A stretch of 56,043 bases of DNA from an uncultured Oscillospiraceae bacterium (GTDB lineage Bacteria > Bacillota > Clostridia > Oscillospirales > Oscillospiraceae). A program made the position numbers and the translations under genes. The notes beneath the pieces were generated by a model, which did not search any database, was not told the DNA's origin, and saw nothing but the letters and a program-made list of their open reading frames with translations. Positions 13,774 through 54,566 of the stretch are shown here, in pieces. Each line of letters opens with the position of its first letter. Position 1 is the stretch's first letter. The DNA is taken from the NCBI GenBank assembly GCA_947624985.1, contig CANQMO010000018.1, positions 1 through 56,043 of the forward strand, given 5' to 3'.

Positions 13774-16700
13774 ATGAGCATGAAAAGGTTGCTCGCTCTG
13801 CTGCTCTGCCTGGCGATGGTTCTGAGCCTGGCGGCGTGCGGTGGGACCAAGGCCGAAGAGACCAAGCCCGAGGCCGCCACCGAGGAGACGGCTGAGGAGC
13901 CCGCCGAGGAGACTGCGGACGAGGCCGAGGAGCCCGCCGAAGAGCCCGAGGACGAGGCTGAAGAACCCGCCGAAGAGCCGGAAGAGCCTGCGGATGAGGC
14001 TGAAGAGCCCGCCGAGGAAGAGGATTCCGGCAGCGACACCGAGGAGCCCGCGGAGGGCGAGGACGAATCCGCCACCGACGCGGAGGAGGAAGAGCCTGCG
14101 AAAGAGCCCGAGGAAGAGCCTGAGGATGAGGCCGAAGAGCCCGAGGAAGAAGTAGAGCTTCTGTGGTGGGCGCCGCCCACGTTCATTCAGGACGCGGACG
14201 ATCCTGCCGGAACATATGAGGAGAAGCTGGTAGAGGAATTCAACGAGAGCCATCCGGGGATCACGGTGCGCGTGGAGACCATCGACTTCACGACGGCCAG
14301 CGATAAGATCACGACGGCGATCGAGAGCGGAACGGCGGCCGACGTGCTGTTCGACGCGCCGGGACGTATCATCGAGTACGGCAAGAACGGGAAGCTGGTG
14401 CCGCTGGACGATATGTTCACGGATGAATTTGTGAAGGACGTGGACAACGAGGCGCTGCTGACGAGTTGCCAGGGAGACGGGACATATTACATGTATCCGA
14501 TCTCGGCGTCACCGTTCTACATGGCGATCAACGAGGCCATGTGGGAGGACGCGGGCGCGATGGAGTATGTGAACCTGGAAGGGGACCGCTCCTGGACGAC
14601 GGAGGACTTTGAGAAGGCGCTGGAGGCGCTGTACGAGGCGGGGTATAACCCCGGGGTGCTGTTCTGCAACGGTCAGGGCGGCGACCAGGGAACGAGAGCG
14701 TTGATCGCCAACCTGTACAGCGGCAGTGTGGCGGACATGGAGAAGTACACGTTCAACAGCCCGGAGATGATCAAGGGGCTGGAGAAGGCGCAGGAATGGC
14801 TGGACAAGGGCTGGCTGGGCAATGGCGTTGAGTACAACGGCGGCCAGAGTATCGAGCTGTTCGTGGCGGGGCAGACGAGCTTTGAGCTTTGCTGGGGCAC
14901 GTCCGCGGCGGGCAACAACGCCGCGACGATGGAAGAGAACGGCGTGACGCCGATCTCTCTGCCGTTCCCGTCAGACGACGGCAAGGCGGAGCTGGAGTAC
15001 CTGGTGAACGGGTTCTGCGTGTTCGACAACGGCGACGAGGCGAAAGCCGAGGCGGCGAAGGAATTTATCAAGTGGATCTGCGACAGTGAGGACAACGTGG
15101 TGCGGACGGGCGCGTTCCCTGTGAAGACGAGCATGGGGAACCTGTATCCGGGCGACGCGGAGAAGGAGCTGCTGGCGGAGTTCACGAAGATGTACGGGCC
15201 GTACTACAACACGATGGACGGCTTTGCGAACATGCGTGCGCAGTGGTTCGACATGCTGCAGCGGATCACCGACGGCGGTGATGTGACGGAGCTTGCCAAC
15301 GCCGCCGTGGAGGCTTCCAACGCGGAGATCGGTATCGTGGAAGAGCCTGCCGACGAGCTGGAAGAAGCCGTTGACGAGCTGGCCGAGGAGGCCGGCGAGG
15401 CCGTTGCCGCCGCCGCTATCGGTGCTGCCGCCGCTGCGGTAGACGCGGACGACGAGGAGCCCGCCGAGGAGCCTGAGGAGGAAGGCGGCGAGGACCTCCA
15501 GGAGGCCATCGATAAACTGGAGAAGGATATCGCCGACGCGGCTGAGGAACCCGAGGAAGAGCCCGAGGAAGAGCCTGCGGAAGAGGCCGAAGAAGAGCCT
15601 GAGGAAGAAGTGGAGCTTCTGTGGTGGGCGCCGCCCACGTTCATCCAGGACGCGGACGATCCTGCCGGAACATATGAGGAGAAGCTGGTAGAGGAATTCA
15701 ACGAGAGCCATCCGGGGATCACGGTGCGCGTGGAGACCATCGACTTCACGACGGCCAGCGATAAGATCACGACGGCGATCGAGAGCGGAACGGCGGCCGA
15801 CGTGCTGTTCGACGCGCCGGGACGTATCATCGAGTACGGCAAGAACGGGAAGCTGGTGCCGCTGGACGATATGTTCACGGATGAATTTGTGAAGGACGTG
15901 GACAACGAGGCGCTGCTGACGAGTTGCCAGGGAGACGGGACATATTACATGTATCCGATCTCGGCGTCACCGTTCTACATGGCGATCAACGAGGCCATGT
16001 GGGAGGACGCGGGCGCGATGGAGTATGTGAACCTGGAAGGGGACCGCTCCTGGACGACGGAGGACTTTGAGAAGGCGCTGGAGGCGCTGTACGAGGCGGG
16101 GTATAACCCCGGGGTGCTGTTCTGCAACGGTCAGGGCGGCGACCAGGGAACGAGAGCGTTGATCGCCAACCTGTACAGCGGCAGTGTGGCGGACATGGAG
16201 AAGTACACGTTCAACAGCCCGGAGATGATCAAGGGGCTGGAGAAGGCGCAGGAATGGCTGGACAAGGGCTGGCTGGGCAATGGCGTTGAGTACAACGGCG
16301 GCCAGAGTATCGAGCTGTTCGTGGCGGGGCAGACGAGCTTTGAGCTTTGCTGGGGCACGTCCGCGGCGGGCAACAACGCCGCGACGATGGAAGAGAACGG
16401 CGTGACGCCGATCTCTCTGCCGTTCCCGTCAGACGACGGCAAGGCGGAGCTGGAGTACCTGGTGAACGGGTTCTGCGTGTTCGACAACGGCGACGAGGCG
16501 AAAGCCGAGGCGGCGAAGGAATTTATCAAGTGGATCTGCGACAGTGAGGACAACGTGGTGCGGACGGGCGCGTTCCCTGTGAAGACGAGCATGGGGAACC
16601 TGTATCCGGGCGACGCGGAGAAGGAGCTGCTGGCGGAGTTCACGAAGATGTACGGGCCGTACTACAACACGATGGACGGCTTTGCGAACATGCGTGCGCA

Positions 16701-35458: not shown

Positions 35459-36226
35459 ATGGCGCAGGTGGACCGGGAGCGGTTCGGGCCCTTCGTGGCC
35501 GAGCTGCGAAAGGAAAAGGGGATGACCCAAAAGGAGCTGGCCCAGCGCATTAACGTGTCGGACAAGGCCGTTTCCAAGTGGGAGCGCTGCGCGGGGCTGC
35601 CGGACATATCGCTGCTGCTGCCGCTGGCGGAGGCGCTGGGCGTGACGGTGACGGAACTGCTGGAGAGCCGGCGGCTGGAGCGGTCGGAGCCGGTGAGCGC
35701 GGACCGGGCGGAGGAGCTGGTGAAGAAAGTCCTGTCCCTGTCCGGCGAGGGAACGCCCCGGGGCGGCCCGGACAGAAAAAAGTGGGGCGTGCGGTACGCG
35801 CTGTGTCTGCTGGCCGCACTGGCGGAGGAAGCGGCGCTTATATACGGGATATACCATGACGCCGCCCATTGGGACGTATACTACCCGGCGGCGCTGCTGA
35901 CGGGGCTCAGCGCCGGGTTTGGCCTGTACTTCTGCCTGTTTGCAAAGACCCGGCTGCCCTGGTATCACGATGTGGGGAATATCGGGATGTATTGCGACGG
36001 GCCGCTGCGCGTGAATATGCCGGGGGTGCGGTTCACCAATCGGAACTGGCCGCACATCCTGCATTGGCTGCGGATCTGGTGTCTGACGGCGATGGCGCTG
36101 AGCGGGGCGGTATGCTTTTTGGCAAAAGGACTGTTCGGCCCGGGGCCCCTGGCCGCCTGGCTGCCGATGACGTCCCTGGCGGGACTTTTCGCGGCGGTAT
36201 ACGTGCCGGGCAAACGATATGAATAA
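35459..36226 (+). CDS. XRE-family helix-turn-helix protein with membrane domain
   Basis: A 255-residue protein. Residues ~8-62 are an HTH_3 domain (FVAELRKEKGMTQKELAQRI, VSDKAVSKWERCAGLPDISL). A short linker follows, then four hydrophobic segments (~110-250). This membrane-tethered XRE architecture is common in Firmicutes; the C-terminal part probably senses an envelope signal (inference). The stop codon is immediately followed by the left terminator of repeat R2 copy 1. Confidence 0.85.
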   Translation: MAQVDRERFGPFVAELRKEKGMTQKELAQRINVSDKAVSKWERCAGLPDISLLLPLAEALGVTVTELLESRRLERSEPVSADRAEELVKKVLSLSGEGTPRGGPDRKKWGVRYALCLLAALAEEAALIYGIYHDAAHWDVYYPAALLTGLSAGFGLYFCLFAKTRLPWYHDVGNIGMYCDGPLRVNMPGVRFTNRNWPHILHWLRIWCLTAMALSGAVCFLAKGLFGPGPLAAWLPMTSLAGLFAAVYVPGKRYE

Positions 36227-36474
36227 GAACGCCGCCGTGCGAAGGCACGGCGGCGTTCTCAGACTGTCAAAGAATGGTTGAGTGGGAGCGAAGCCCGGTC
36301 AGGGCGAGCCGCGCGGCATTCCCGCGCGTGAAGTCAAAAGCCGTTGGACGACAGGCTTTTGACTTCCTGCCGGCGGGATTCACTCCCGCCGAGCAGATTC
36401 AATCAGAGCGGTCAAAAACTTGTTTTTTGACAAGCTCAGAGCGCCGCCGTGCGAAGGCACGGCGGCGTTCTTCC
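36227..36474 (+). repeat. R2 element, copy 1, flanked by duplicated terminator hairpins
   Basis: Left hairpin 36227-36258 (GAACGCCGCCGTGC, GAAG loop) and right hairpin 36442-36468 have the same sequence; only the right one keeps its T-rich tail. Between them lies a 182-bp core (36260-36441) starting CAGACTGTCAAAGAA and ending GACAAGCTC. Core stems: GCGCGG/CCGCGC (36311-36327), AAGTCAAAAGCC/GGCTTTTGACTT (36331-36365), CGGCGGGA/TCCCGCCG and GTCAAAAA/TTTTTGAC. No ORF of note. Confidence 0.88.
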
Positions 36475-36483
36475 ATTTTGCCG

Positions 36484-37602
36484 TTATTGCTCGCCGAACA
36501 TCTCGGCACACTTGGCCAGGTGTTCCGTGACGGGCAGGTGCTGGGGGCAGGCCTTCTCACACTGCTTGCAGCCAATGCAGTCGGCGGCGGTGTGTCCCGC
36601 CGAGACGGCGGCGGCGTAATCGGCCCGGGCCTGGGCCGTCTGGCCGTTTCCAAGCTGTTTATTGGCGGCGGCGAAGATGTCCGGGATGGGGATCTGCTTC
36701 GGGCACCCCTCCGTACAGTAGTGACAGGCGGTGCAGGCTATGGCGGCGGAGTTGCCCAGTATCTTCTGGGCCTGGCGGATGATGGCCTGTTCCTCGTCGT
36801 TCAGGGGCTGGAAATCCTTCATGAACGACAGGTTGTCGTCCATCTGGGCGGTATTGCTCATGCCGGACAGCACCGTGATGATACCATCCAGACTTGCCAC
36901 GAACCGGATGGCCCAGCTGGCGCAGGAGGCGTCCGGGGCATAGTCGTGGAAGAGCGTTTTCACTTCCTCGGGCGGGTCGGCCAGCCGTCCGCCCTTCACC
37001 GGTTCCATGACCACGATACCCTTATCATGGGCCCGGGCCGTCTCATAATTGGCCCGGCTGGCGACAGAGGGGTTTTCCCAGTCGGCGTAGTTGATCTGTA
37101 GCTGGACGAAGTCTACCTCCGGGTGCTCGGTGAGCAGCCTGTCCAGCAGGGCGGGACCGCCGTGGAAGGAAAATCCCAGGTGCCGGATGGTCCCCCGGGC
37201 CTTCTGCTCGGCGGCGAAGTCCCAGAGACGGAACCGGTCGTATTTGTCGACGTTGTTCTCCTGTAGCGCGTGGAGCAGGTAGTAGTCGAAGTACCCGGCC
37301 CCGGTCCGCTGCAAGCTGGTGGCAAACTGCTTTTTCGCCGCCTTTTCCGTGACGGCTACCATGGCGTTGAGCTTGGAGGCCAGGGTGTAGCTGCCCCGGG
37401 GATGCCGGTCCACCAGGGCCTTTTTCGCCGCCGCCTCGGAGCCCAGGTACACAAAGGCGGTGTCGAAGTAGGTGAAGCCCCCGTCCAGAAACCGGTCCAC
37501 CATCTGCTTCGTCTGTTCCACGTCGATGTGCACGCCCTTTTTGGGCAGGCGCATCAGGCCGAAACCCAGCTTCGGCGTGTCCTTGCCGAAATAGTCGGAC
37601 AT
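36484..37602 (-). CDS. aldo/keto reductase with C-terminal 4Fe-4S ferredoxin domain
   Basis: A 372-residue protein: residues 1-265 are an aldo/keto reductase TIM barrel (LGFGLMRLP, FDTAFVYLGSE, ASKLNAM, YYLLHAL, LGFSFHGG) and residues ~280-372 carry two Cys clusters, CTACHYCTEGCP and CIGCKQCEKACP, for iron-sulfur clusters. Such fusions are common in anaerobes; the substrate is unknown and electron transfer may come via ferredoxin. RBS AAGGAGGG. It lies 27 bp downstream of the MATE gene on the same strand. Confidence 0.9.
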   Translation of the reverse strand: MSDYFGKDTPKLGFGLMRLPKKGVHIDVEQTKQMVDRFLDGGFTYFDTAFVYLGSEAAAKKALVDRHPRGSYTLASKLNAMVAVTEKAAKKQFATSLQRTGAGYFDYYLLHALQENNVDKYDRFRLWDFAAEQKARGTIRHLGFSFHGGPALLDRLLTEHPEVDFVQLQINYADWENPSVASRANYETARAHDKGIVVMEPVKGGRLADPPEEVKTLFHDYAPDASCASWAIRFVASLDGIITVLSGMSNTAQMDDNLSFMKDFQPLNDEEQAIIRQAQKILGNSAAIACTACHYCTEGCPKQIPIPDIFAAANKQLGNGQTAQARADYAAAVSAGHTAADCIGCKQCEKACPQHLPVTEHLAKCAEMFGEQ

Positions 37603-46142: not shown

Positions 46143-46327
46143 GTCTAACGGGGTATTGGGACCTGTCCGAAAGCATTTCCGCCCGCTCGCGTTCCGCTGC
46201 GCGTCCGAAAATCGCGGGCGGAAACGCTTCCGGCCCGGTCTTCGGACTTTCGGTGCGCCGCCCTAAAGGTCATGGCCCGCCATGACCTTTACATGGCGGG
46301 ACGGCTATAACAGAGCAAAGTAGAACG
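46143..46327 (+). repeat. R3 structured repeat, copy 1
   Basis: Core 46158-46277 (GGGACCTGTCCGAAAGCA to GGTCATGGCC) matches copy 2 at ~93% by eye with a one-base indel. Outer stem GTCCGAA/TTCGGAC encloses TTTCCGCCCGC/GCGGGCGGAAA. Here an extra hairpin around CATGGCGGG follows the core. The flanks share TAACAG and AGAAC words with copy 2. The rest of 46116-46427 holds only the trxB promoter. Confidence 0.85.
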
Positions 46328-51876: not shown

Positions 51877-52581
51877 GTGGACGAGACGATAACTCTTTTG
51901 CGGGCCGCCCAGTCCGGGGACCGGGAGGCGGCGGGCCGGATGATCGAGGCGAACACGGGCCTCATATGGAGCGTGGCCAGGCGGTTTTTCGGCCGGGGCG
52001 TGGAACCGGACGACCTGTATCAGCTGGGCTGTCTGGGCTTTTTGAAGGCCATCGACGGCTTTGACGAGAGCTATGGCACCCGCTTTTCCACCTATGCCGT
52101 GCCCAAGATATCCGGGGAGATACGCCGCTTCCTCCGGGACGACGGGGCGGTGAAGGTGAGCCGGGGTATCAAGGAGCGGGCCGCGTCCATCCGGGCCGCC
52201 CGGAAGCAGCTGGAGCAGGAGCTGGGACGGGACCCTACCGTGTCGGAGCTGGCGGCACAGACCGGGTTCACGGCGGAGGATATCGCCGTGGCGGAGACGG
52301 CCACCGTGCCCATCGAGTCCCTGCAACAGCCCACCGGGGAGGAGGGCTTCTCCCTGGAGCAAATGCTGGGCGACTGGACGGTGGAGGAAAAGCTGGTGGA
52401 GCGCGTGGCCCTGCGGCAGGCCATCGAGGAACTGCCGGAGAAGGAGCGGCAGGTGGTCTTTCTGCGGTTCTACCACGGCATGACCCAGGACCGGGCCAGC
52501 CGGGTGCTGGGGGTGAGCCAGGTGCAGGTGTCCCGGCTGGAGCGCCGGGCGGTGAAGCTGCTGCGGGAGCTTTTGGAATAA
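51877..52581 (+). CDS. sigF: RNA polymerase sporulation sigma factor SigF
   Basis: A 234-residue sigma-70 family factor: region 2 (ARRFFGRGVEPDDLYQLGCLGFLKAI, GTRFSTYAVPKISGEIRRFL), region 3 (RDPTVSELAAQTGF) and region 4 (LPEKERQVVFLRFYHGMTQ, VLGVSQVQVSRLERRAVKLL). It directs early forespore transcription. Start GTG 51877 abuts the spoIIAB stop. Repeat R2 copy 2 begins at its stop codon. Confidence 0.95.
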   Translation: MDETITLLRAAQSGDREAAGRMIEANTGLIWSVARRFFGRGVEPDDLYQLGCLGFLKAIDGFDESYGTRFSTYAVPKISGEIRRFLRDDGAVKVSRGIKERAASIRAARKQLEQELGRDPTVSELAAQTGFTAEDIAVAETATVPIESLQQPTGEEGFSLEQMLGDWTVEEKLVERVALRQAIEELPEKERQVVFLRFYHGMTQDRASRVLGVSQVQVSRLERRAVKLLRELLE

Positions 52582-52818
52582 AGCGGACGTGTTTTGGCAC
52601 GTCCGCTTCAGACTGTCAAAGAAGGGATAAACGGGAGCGAAGCCCGGTCAGGGCGAGCCAGGCGGCGAAGCCGCCTGTGAAGTCAAAAGCCGTTGTGCGA
52701 CAGGCTTTTGACTTCCTGCCGGCGGGATTCACTTCCGCCGAGCAGTTTCTATCAGAGCGGTCAAAAAACTCGTTTTTTGACAAGCTCGAGCGGACGTGTT
52801 TTGGCACGTCCGCTTTTC
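52581..52818 (+). repeat. R2 element, copy 2, flanked by duplicated terminator hairpins
   Basis: Left hairpin 52581-52608 (AAGCGGACGTG, loop TTTTGG) and right hairpin 52790-52813 have the same sequence, unlike the hairpins at copy 1. The 182-bp core (52609-52790) aligns along its whole length with copy 1. The variable stem is AGGCGGC/GCCGCCT here versus GCGCGG/CCGCGC there. The right hairpin keeps the CTTTTCC tail and is the functional terminator of the spoIIA operon. Confidence 0.88.
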
Positions 52819-54399: not shown

Positions 54400-54566
54400 G
54401 TTTAACGTTCTATTTCGGTATCGGGACCTGTCCGAAAGCATTTCCACCCGCTCGCGTTCCGTTGGCGCGTCCGAAAATCGCGGGCGGAAACGCTTCCGGC
54501 CCGGTCTTCGGACTTTTGGTGCGCTGTCCTAAAGGTCATGGCCGTAACAGGGTAGATCAGAACAAC
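54400..54566 (+). repeat. R3 structured repeat, copy 2
   Basis: Core 54423-54543 aligns with 46158-46277. The stem TTTCCACCCGC/GCGGGCGGAAA has one A-C mismatch relative to copy 1. Flanks TTTAACG and TAACAG...AGAAC are shared with copy 1, but the extra CATGGCGGG hairpin is absent. Together with the promoter at 54626 it fills the 331-bp gap before the crotonase gene. Confidence 0.85.

What the first reader, a model, noticed from the sequence alone, without database searches (positions are those of the whole stretch)
36227..36474. R2: structured element whose insertion appears to duplicate an entire terminator hairpin (copy 1)
A 182-bp core is bounded on both sides by the same GC hairpin (CGCCGCCGTGC/GCACGGCGGCG). 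At the second locus a core of exactly the same length is bounded by a different hairpin, again the same on both sides. The simplest reading is a non-autonomous mobile element that targets rho-independent terminators and leaves a ~25-30 bp target duplication covering the hairpin, so the upstream gene keeps termination. The core has no ORF but at least four stems; one differs between copies with pairing kept. I know of no named element with this behaviour.
Basis: partly seen in the sequence, partly recalled or inferred. Interest (0 to 1): 0.88.

Follow-up and report, generated by a model that had tools for sequence, protein, structure and literature searches.

The report
Tiny jumping element duplicating terminator hairpins
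A short gene-less jumping element from a gut bacterium, most likely moved by a known type of transposase (IS1182 family), lands on hairpins at gene ends and copies the whole hairpin to its other side, so that both neighbours can keep a stop signal.

Summary
36260-36437 and 52609-52788 are two copies of a 178-180 bp element without a gene; each sits between two copies of one hairpin, a different hairpin at each site. Related copies occur in 22 of 35 genomes of the genus (own included). Of 57 nearly full-length copies, 27 have matching hairpins on both sides, 25 a hairpin only on the right, 2 only on the left, 3 on neither. Orthologous sites without the element carry one hairpin at both insertions where this could be tested (2 of 5 tried). 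The ends, not the interior, match those of IS1182-family insertion sequences, so it is best read as a MITE of that family. Such IS elements do the same: 42 of 59 tested loci have hairpin repeats; 41 measured, 20-64 bp, mostly centred on the hairpin and following its size. Four interior stems are kept by compensatory changes. Hairpin targeting by this family is known (IS1272), but IS1272 is reported to delete or replace the hairpin; Wan et al. 2017 drew whole-stem-loop duplication as a hypothetical branch. New here: the MITE family, natural evidence for that branch, and its presence in Clostridia, Bacilli and Proteobacteria. Mobilisation and the cruciform are inferred.

The parts
36226..36259 (+). 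left target copy, copy 1: hairpin at the end of the upstream gene
   Evidence: 34-bp direct repeat with 36438-36471, forms a full hairpin
36260..36437 (+). MITE copy 1 (178 bp)
   Evidence: 27 BLAST matches in the own genome, three of them antisense inside other copies; matches in 22 of 35 genomes of the genus
36260..36274 (+). left terminal repeat CAGACTGTCAAAGAA
   Evidence: identical to ends of IS1182-family loci such as L115, L177, L183
36288..36395 (+). interior with helices 2-6 of the alignment; helices 3-6 have compensatory changes
36422..36437 (+). right terminal repeat; reverse complement GAGCTTGTCAAAAAAC
   Evidence: 15 bases 36422-36436 identical to ends of L144, L164 and others
36438..36471 (+). 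right target copy, copy 1: the same hairpin
   Evidence: called terminator-like
52582..52608 (+). left target copy, copy 2: hairpin directly after the upstream gene
   Evidence: 27-bp perfect repeat with 52789-52815
52609..52788 (+). MITE copy 2 (180 bp)
52789..52815 (+). right target copy, copy 2
   Evidence: orthologous site in G020 (L234) has one such hairpin and no element
35459..36226 (+). gene upstream of copy 1 (HTH-type protein; name from reading the sequence, not from a search)
   Evidence: ORF of 255 aa
36484..37602 (-). convergent gene downstream of copy 1 (aldo/keto-reductase-like with ferredoxin-type end; name not from a search)
   Evidence: ORF of 372 aa; DNA matches in same-genus genomes
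51877..52581 (+). gene upstream of copy 2 (sporulation-type sigma factor; name not from a search)
   Evidence: ORF of 234 aa
52878..53546 (+). gene downstream of copy 2 (L-serine-dehydratase-like; name not from a search)
   Evidence: ORF of 222 aa

Best explanation
The feature is a MITE (non-autonomous miniature transposon) of an IS1182-family insertion sequence. A DDE transposase of that family, encoded elsewhere, acts on the two ~15-bp ends. It recognises its target as a hairpin and not as a sequence: hairpins at gene ends, mostly between convergent genes. Both strand joins fall at the 5' foot of the two arms of the extruded palindrome (a cruciform), so each strand leaves a gap as long as the whole hairpin; fill-in copies it to both sides. 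Shown here by sequence: insertion, whole-hairpin direct repeats, a single hairpin at two empty sites, and end repeats shared with IS1182-family elements that make the same repeats. Inferred: that this transposase moves the MITE in trans, that the target is a cruciform when attacked, that the hairpins act as terminators, and that keeping one on both sides is why such insertions are tolerated. One-sided copies are most likely older insertions that lost one hairpin.
For: 57 nearly full-length copies: 27 with matching hairpins on both sides, 25 right only, 2 left only, 3 none; 2.2% of 534 background windows reach the hairpin threshold. Empty sites: at copy 2, 15 other-species loci were returned, none with the core in the stretch held; 3 of them (by eye) have the sigma-like gene directly followed by one hairpin, in G020 the orthologous one, in G034 and G027 another. 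At L015, 13 of 19 loci matched on both flanks: in G020 the two matches overlap by 22 bases on one orthologous hairpin; 10 others have one other hairpin (by eye) and no core. Partner: IS1182 model 406 bits, cut-off 270; L105 has like ends and one hairpin on both sides, 19 of 20 bases alike. IS loci: of 80 kept, 12 too near an edge, 9 too partial; of 59 tested, 42 have repeats scoring 17 or more, control 99th percentile 13. Repeat length follows hairpin span measured on the rejoined site: r = 0.82 for 41 IS sites, 0.77 for all 69; centred alike (end offsets differ by at most 3) in 64 of 69. All 8 Chakrabartyella piscis copies among the 80 have different duplicated hairpins. Of 30 matches between MITE and 98 IS loci at E <= 1, 29 lie in the ends. 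Of 49 confidently called copies, 33 are convergent, 16 tandem, 0 divergent.
Against: 30 of 57 nearly full-length copies lack two matching hairpins. Loss is inferred: such copies are less like their nearest relative (median 0.935 against 0.955, p = 9e-4) and have more mismatches in the left end (p = 0.005), but the right end shows no difference in median, and copies are not independent events. The right-hand excess (25 to 2) is unexplained and partly shaped by my full-length filter. For MITE copies alone the length correlation is weak (r = 0.47, p = 0.012, n = 28), and r = 0.23 with my first, looser hairpin rule. 17 of 59 IS loci and 6 of 12 hand-picked relatives show no such repeat. The own genome (87.6% complete) has only one match to the transposase domain, 21 bits, below cut-off. 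Copy 1 has no empty site: its upstream gene was found in none of 29 other-species loci. Copies of the interior without ends carry long repeats that are not simple hairpins.
Confidence: 0.9

Rival explanations
1. A DDE element with a fixed long stagger (about 27 bp, as in the long-TSD group of the IS1202 family) that merely prefers gene ends, the hairpins being incidental.
For: Many repeats are 24-35 bp; IS1202-group elements have 16-28 bp TSDs with no target found, and IS1202-family ends are TGT/ACA (PMC10132070, passages).
Against: Repeats at IS sites range from 20 to 64 bp and repeat and hairpin are centred alike in 64 of 69 sites; the partner transposase is IS1182 by NCBIfam; the one integrase-core (rve) match in the own genome, L104, had no like end pair in my end scan.
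Confidence: 0.03
2. Stem-loop replacement as reported for IS1272, with the two flanking hairpins belonging to the element itself.
For: IS1272 is an IS1182-family element that targets stem-loops (PMC4923244, PMC5678879).
Against: The hairpin differs from site to site while the element ends stay alike; two empty sites carry a hairpin once.
Confidence: 0.02
3. Mixed outcome: some insertions join at the 5' feet on both strands (duplication), others bluntly at one foot, so that one-sided copies are primary products and not decay.
For: 25 of 57 copies have only the right hairpin, 2 only the left; blunt insertion at hairpins is described for TnSha1 (PMC4923244).
Against: One-sided copies look older and have more eroded left ends; some keep what looks by eye like a fragment of the left hairpin, e.g. 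L011, L013.
Confidence: 0.25
4. A structured RNA or 3'-UTR element kept for regulation and spread by recombination between terminators, not by transposition.
For: Covariation of interior stems; position at gene ends.
Against: Ends shared with a transposon family, direct repeats, empty sites; no Rfam family reached its gathering score in 36000-36700.
Confidence: 0.04

Closest known systems
IS1272 / TnSha1, IS1182 family (PMC4923244: passages; PMC5678879: abstract, passages, Discussion part 1 of 2)
   Same: IS1182-family transposase; target is a stem-loop, often a terminator, without sequence consensus
   Different: reported to delete or replace the stem-loop with no target duplication; here the whole stem-loop is duplicated
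Pathway b of Fig. 13 in Wan et al. 2017 (PMC5678879; legend and Discussion part 1 read)
   Different: there a drawn possibility beside the authors' model for IS1272; here seen at many natural sites
Long-TSD group of the IS1202 family (PMC10132070; abstract and passages)
   Same: unusually long duplications; TGT near the ends
   Different: another transposase family; no target found there
Bacterial MITEs in general (e.g. PMC6382973, PMC10969869; search listings only)
   Same: short, non-coding, end repeats shared with an IS
   Different: short fixed TSDs are usual (recalled); here the repeat is the whole hairpin
Group IIC introns (recalled)
   Same: insert next to terminator hairpins
   Different: retroelements, no target duplication (recalled); no such family among the Rfam matches of this stretch

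Membership tests
MITE of the IS1182 family | end repeats match those of IS1182-family elements | tested here: met
   15-17 identical end bases; against five IS that I chose, best ends differ from the MITE ends by 2 (left) and 1 (right) of 16; 0 of 2000 draws of two random window 16-mers came within 3 of the right end
MITE of the IS1182 family | short, no transposase gene | tested here: met
   178-180 bp; the ORFs that cross it read out into neighbouring genes on the wrong strand
MITE of the IS1182 family | same type of target duplication as the autonomous element | tested here: met
   matching hairpins in 27 of 57 MITE copies and whole-hairpin repeats in 42 of 59 IS loci (one of the 42, L123, cut by my search window)
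MITE of the IS1182 family | autonomous copy in the same genome (usual, not strict) | tested here: not met
   one match below cut-off in G000, 87.6% complete; full-length IS in G011 of the same genus; 9 of 35 genomes over cut-off
MITE of the IS1182 family | mobilised in trans by that transposase | not testable with these tools
   needs an experiment
IS1272-type stem-loop replacement | target stem-loop lost, no TSD | tested here: not met
   duplicated in 27 of 57 copies; single hairpin at two empty sites. The 30 other copies do not test it
IS1202 family | TnsB-like transposase of that family | tested here: not met
   the partner found is NF033551 IS1182

The most novel reading that the evidence does not exclude
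A large part of the IS1182 family is a class of structure-guided transposons: the transposase reads a cruciform, joins at the 5' foot of each arm, and the target duplication is by construction the palindrome itself, whatever its length. The family thereby inserts at gene ends without removing termination, and its MITEs keep a folded interior because they end up in transcribed gene ends.
Probability: 0.55. Interest if true: 0.75.

Novelty: new variant of a known kind. Interest (0 to 1): 0.62.

Why it matters
It would explain variable and sometimes very long target duplications of IS1182-family elements by one rule (the repeat is the hairpin), gives natural evidence for a transposition route that had been drawn as a possibility, and shows how an element can sit at gene ends while leaving a hairpin on either side. 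It also offers a directly testable case of a transposase that may read DNA shape instead of sequence.

Tried and rejected
IS1202-type fixed long stagger: considered first because of the TGTC ends and long repeats, dropped once the IS1182 partner was found. Rfam: seven sub-threshold matches in 36000-36700, judged chance. Empty-site searches for L018 and L067 gave no locus with both flanks (0 of 19 and 0 of 13 loci compared; six further L067 loci that matched only through the element were left out). For copy 1 the upstream gene was found in none of 29 other-species loci by blastn or tblastn. Neighbour orientation by longest open frame was useless in this G+C-rich DNA and was replaced by codon-usage scoring trained on long window ORFs; 8 of 57 copies stayed unclear there. 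My first length test measured the hairpin inside the repeat (r = 0.81), which is circular and not used. A second, looser rule over-extended some stems (MITE r = 0.23, IS 0.82); the tighter rule is the one reported, chosen. The 25:2 right-left asymmetry is partly an effect of my full-length filter: over all 89 copies a hairpin lies beside the element on both sides in 29 (not always the same hairpin), right only in 34, left only in 10, neither in 16. An exact-pattern scan of viral contigs found no copy. Twelve IS1182 relatives, picked by me from 373 plasmid and 14 phage records: 6 of 12 have a whole-hairpin repeat of 20-35 bp (Cytobacillus, Aminobacter, Salinivibrio, a Streptococcus phage, a Streptococcus satellite phage, Enterococcus ISEfa7); 6 do not: Thermocaproicibacter (flank cut by the record's start, so no fair test), Enterococcus hirae, Staphylococcus simulans, an unnamed phage clone, and two with 26-28% identical transposases.

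Literature: 10 searches of the held open-access library. Nothing in the listings and passages that I saw reports whole-hairpin duplication by an IS1182-family element or a MITE of this kind. Subscription papers, ISfinder and TnPedia are not covered; I recall '0-60 bp' repeats listed for this family, so long repeats may be on record there.

Full report
What is there. Copy 1 (36260-36437) and copy 2 (52609-52788) are homologous elements without a credible gene, 87-89% identical. Each is bounded by direct repeats that are complete hairpins: 34 bp at copy 1 (one mismatch) and 27 bp at copy 2 (none), with different sequences at the two sites. The right hairpin of copy 1 is called terminator-like by a simple consensus scan; the left one is not. 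By codon-usage scoring copy 1 lies between convergent genes and copy 2 between tandem genes.

Other copies. The window is contig 18 of a 2.28-Mb genome in 44 contigs, 87.6% complete. BLAST with the copy-1 element gives 27 matches there at E <= 1e-3, three of them antisense matches inside other copies. In the genus, 22 of 35 genomes (own included) match at E <= 1e-10; the match list of that call was capped. I examined 89 of the 103 loci then held; 14 were left out because they repeated another locus, held only a short piece, or held only an end. Of the 89, 42 have a flank repeat at or above the 99th percentile (10) of 2000 random pairings, whose maximum was 19. 57 of the 89 are nearly full length: 27 have matching hairpins on both sides, 25 a hairpin only on the right, 2 only on the left (one with a partial repeat), 3 on neither; 2.2% of 534 windows of 45 nt from the same loci reach the hairpin threshold.

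Is it insertion with duplication? The direct test is an empty site; I tried five insertions and two were testable. For copy 2, 15 other-species loci were returned, none with the core in the stretch held. Five carry the sigma-like gene upstream, three of them (by eye) directly followed by one hairpin: G020, 86% identical over the downstream stretch, has a hairpin recognisably orthologous to the duplicated one; G034 and G027 have another. For the own-genome copy L015, 19 orthologous loci were compared; 13 matched on both flanks. In G020 the two flank matches overlap by 22 bases on a single orthologous hairpin; 10 more have one other hairpin (by eye) and no core; L291 has a large other insert and L292 a stretch resembling an element end. 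Copy 1, L018 and L067 gave no usable site. So the duplication reading survived at both testable insertions.

What moves it. In the own genome one end CAGACTGTCAAAGAA lies beside a short reading frame that looks like the C-terminal end of an IS1182-type transposase (recalled); Pfam DDE_Tnp_1_6 gives 21 bits there, below cut-off. In the genus 12 of 35 genomes match that domain, 9 over cut-off. G011 has a full element (L105): its ends are CAGTCTGTCAAAGAA on both sides, and both flanks carry the hairpin GGACACGCGAATGCGTGTCC, 19 of 20 bases alike. Its protein is an IS1182-family transposase (NF033551, 406 bits, cut-off 270; Pfam). Of 30 matches at E <= 1 between the MITE and 98 IS loci, 29 lie in the ends; the other is a 14-base match at E 0.26.

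The autonomous elements do the same. With the L105 transposase, 203 places in the genome collection encode a relative and the best 80 were kept, by their titles mostly Oscillospiraceae and other Clostridia. Twelve lay too near a contig edge and nine were too partial. Of the 59 tested, 42 have flanking direct repeats with score 17 or more (control 99th percentile 13); 41 were measured, L123 being cut by my search window. Repeats are 20 to 64 bp; the longest, at L144, is a 64-bp palindrome with a 4-base loop. All 8 Chakrabartyella piscis loci among the 80 have different duplicated hairpins. Seventeen of 59 showed no such repeat. Twelve further relatives from plasmid and phage records, picked by me, gave 6 whole-hairpin repeats (Bacilli, Alpha- and Gammaproteobacteria); six gave none, one of them cut by the record's start.

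The rule. Measured on the rejoined site and not inside the repeat, hairpin span and repeat length correlate: r = 0.82 for 41 IS sites, 0.47 for 28 MITE sites, 0.77 together. Both ends lie within 4 bases of the hairpin ends in 58 of 69 sites, and end offsets differ by at most 3 in 64 of 69. A looser hairpin rule gave 0.82, 0.23 and 0.66. A fixed stagger does not give this; joins at the two 5' feet of a cruciform would. Wan et al. 2017 (PMC5678879; abstract, passages and Discussion part 1 of 2 read) drew this as pathway b of their Figure 13, while their own data on IS1272 show replacement of the stem-loop; Furi et al. 2016 (PMC4923244; passages) report partial deletion of hairpins by IS1272 and TnSha1. 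Both cite a review by Siguier et al. that some IS1182 members target palindromes; I have not seen it. The cruciform is inference: the sequence shows only where the joins are.

Where it lands. For 49 of 57 copies both neighbours could be called: 33 convergent, 16 tandem, none divergent. Tandem cases split 7 and 9 by element orientation, so no preference is seen. I did not measure how often hairpins or gaps of each kind occur in these genomes.

One-sided copies. They count against a simple reading. They resemble their nearest relative less (median identity 0.935 against 0.955, Mann-Whitney p = 9e-4) and have more mismatches in the left end (median 2 against 1, p = 0.005), but not in the right end by median (0 and 0). 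Copies are not independent events. I take most one-sided copies as decayed, with primary one-sided insertion as a live rival.

Interior. The alignment of 57 copies (A1) folds into six helices; the first pairs the two ends, the second has two pairs and no covariation, and helices 3 to 6 have compensatory changes: 13 of 42 pairs, 0 of 500 shuffles reaching that; 99.5% of cells pair against 33-48% when partners are slid by 1-3 columns. The structure was derived from the same alignment and the shuffles do not remove relatedness, so this is strong but not independent evidence. A role for the stems (in 3' UTRs, in transposase recognition, in termination) is open.

Verdict. A real and well-supported finding: a MITE family of IS1182-type elements that I have not found described, and natural evidence for stem-loop-duplicating transposition. 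New variant of a known kind.

Noticed in passing
L100, L102, L053, L103 (query 27-147 or less) and L099 (left end missing): Copies of the interior lacking one or both end repeats yet flanked by direct repeats of 13-69 aligned bases that are not simple hairpins (in L100 and L102, by eye, gene-end sequence with a partial fold). The hairpin rule does not explain these.
   Followed up: partly
L003, around 1501: The same end CAGACTGTCAAAGAA beside a hairpin but with an unrelated interior: perhaps a second MITE type or an IS remnant in the own genome.
   Followed up: partly
window 46152-46277 and 54417-54543: A second interspersed repeat of about 126 bp in the window, 94-96% identical.
   Followed up: no
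window 14134-14433 and 15592-15891: A 300-bp direct repeat, 99% identical, next to a stretch of short GAG/CCC-rich repeats.
   Followed up: no
L021 (G000 C19) and L067 (G020 C11): An element after what looks like the same upstream gene in two species, in G000 with a truncated right end: possibly a shared old insertion.
   Followed up: no
L311 (Staphylococcus simulans plasmid): An IS1182-family transposase gene without a hairpin repeat, unlike L312, L315 and L316: a possible place to compare duplicating and replacing members.
   Followed up: no
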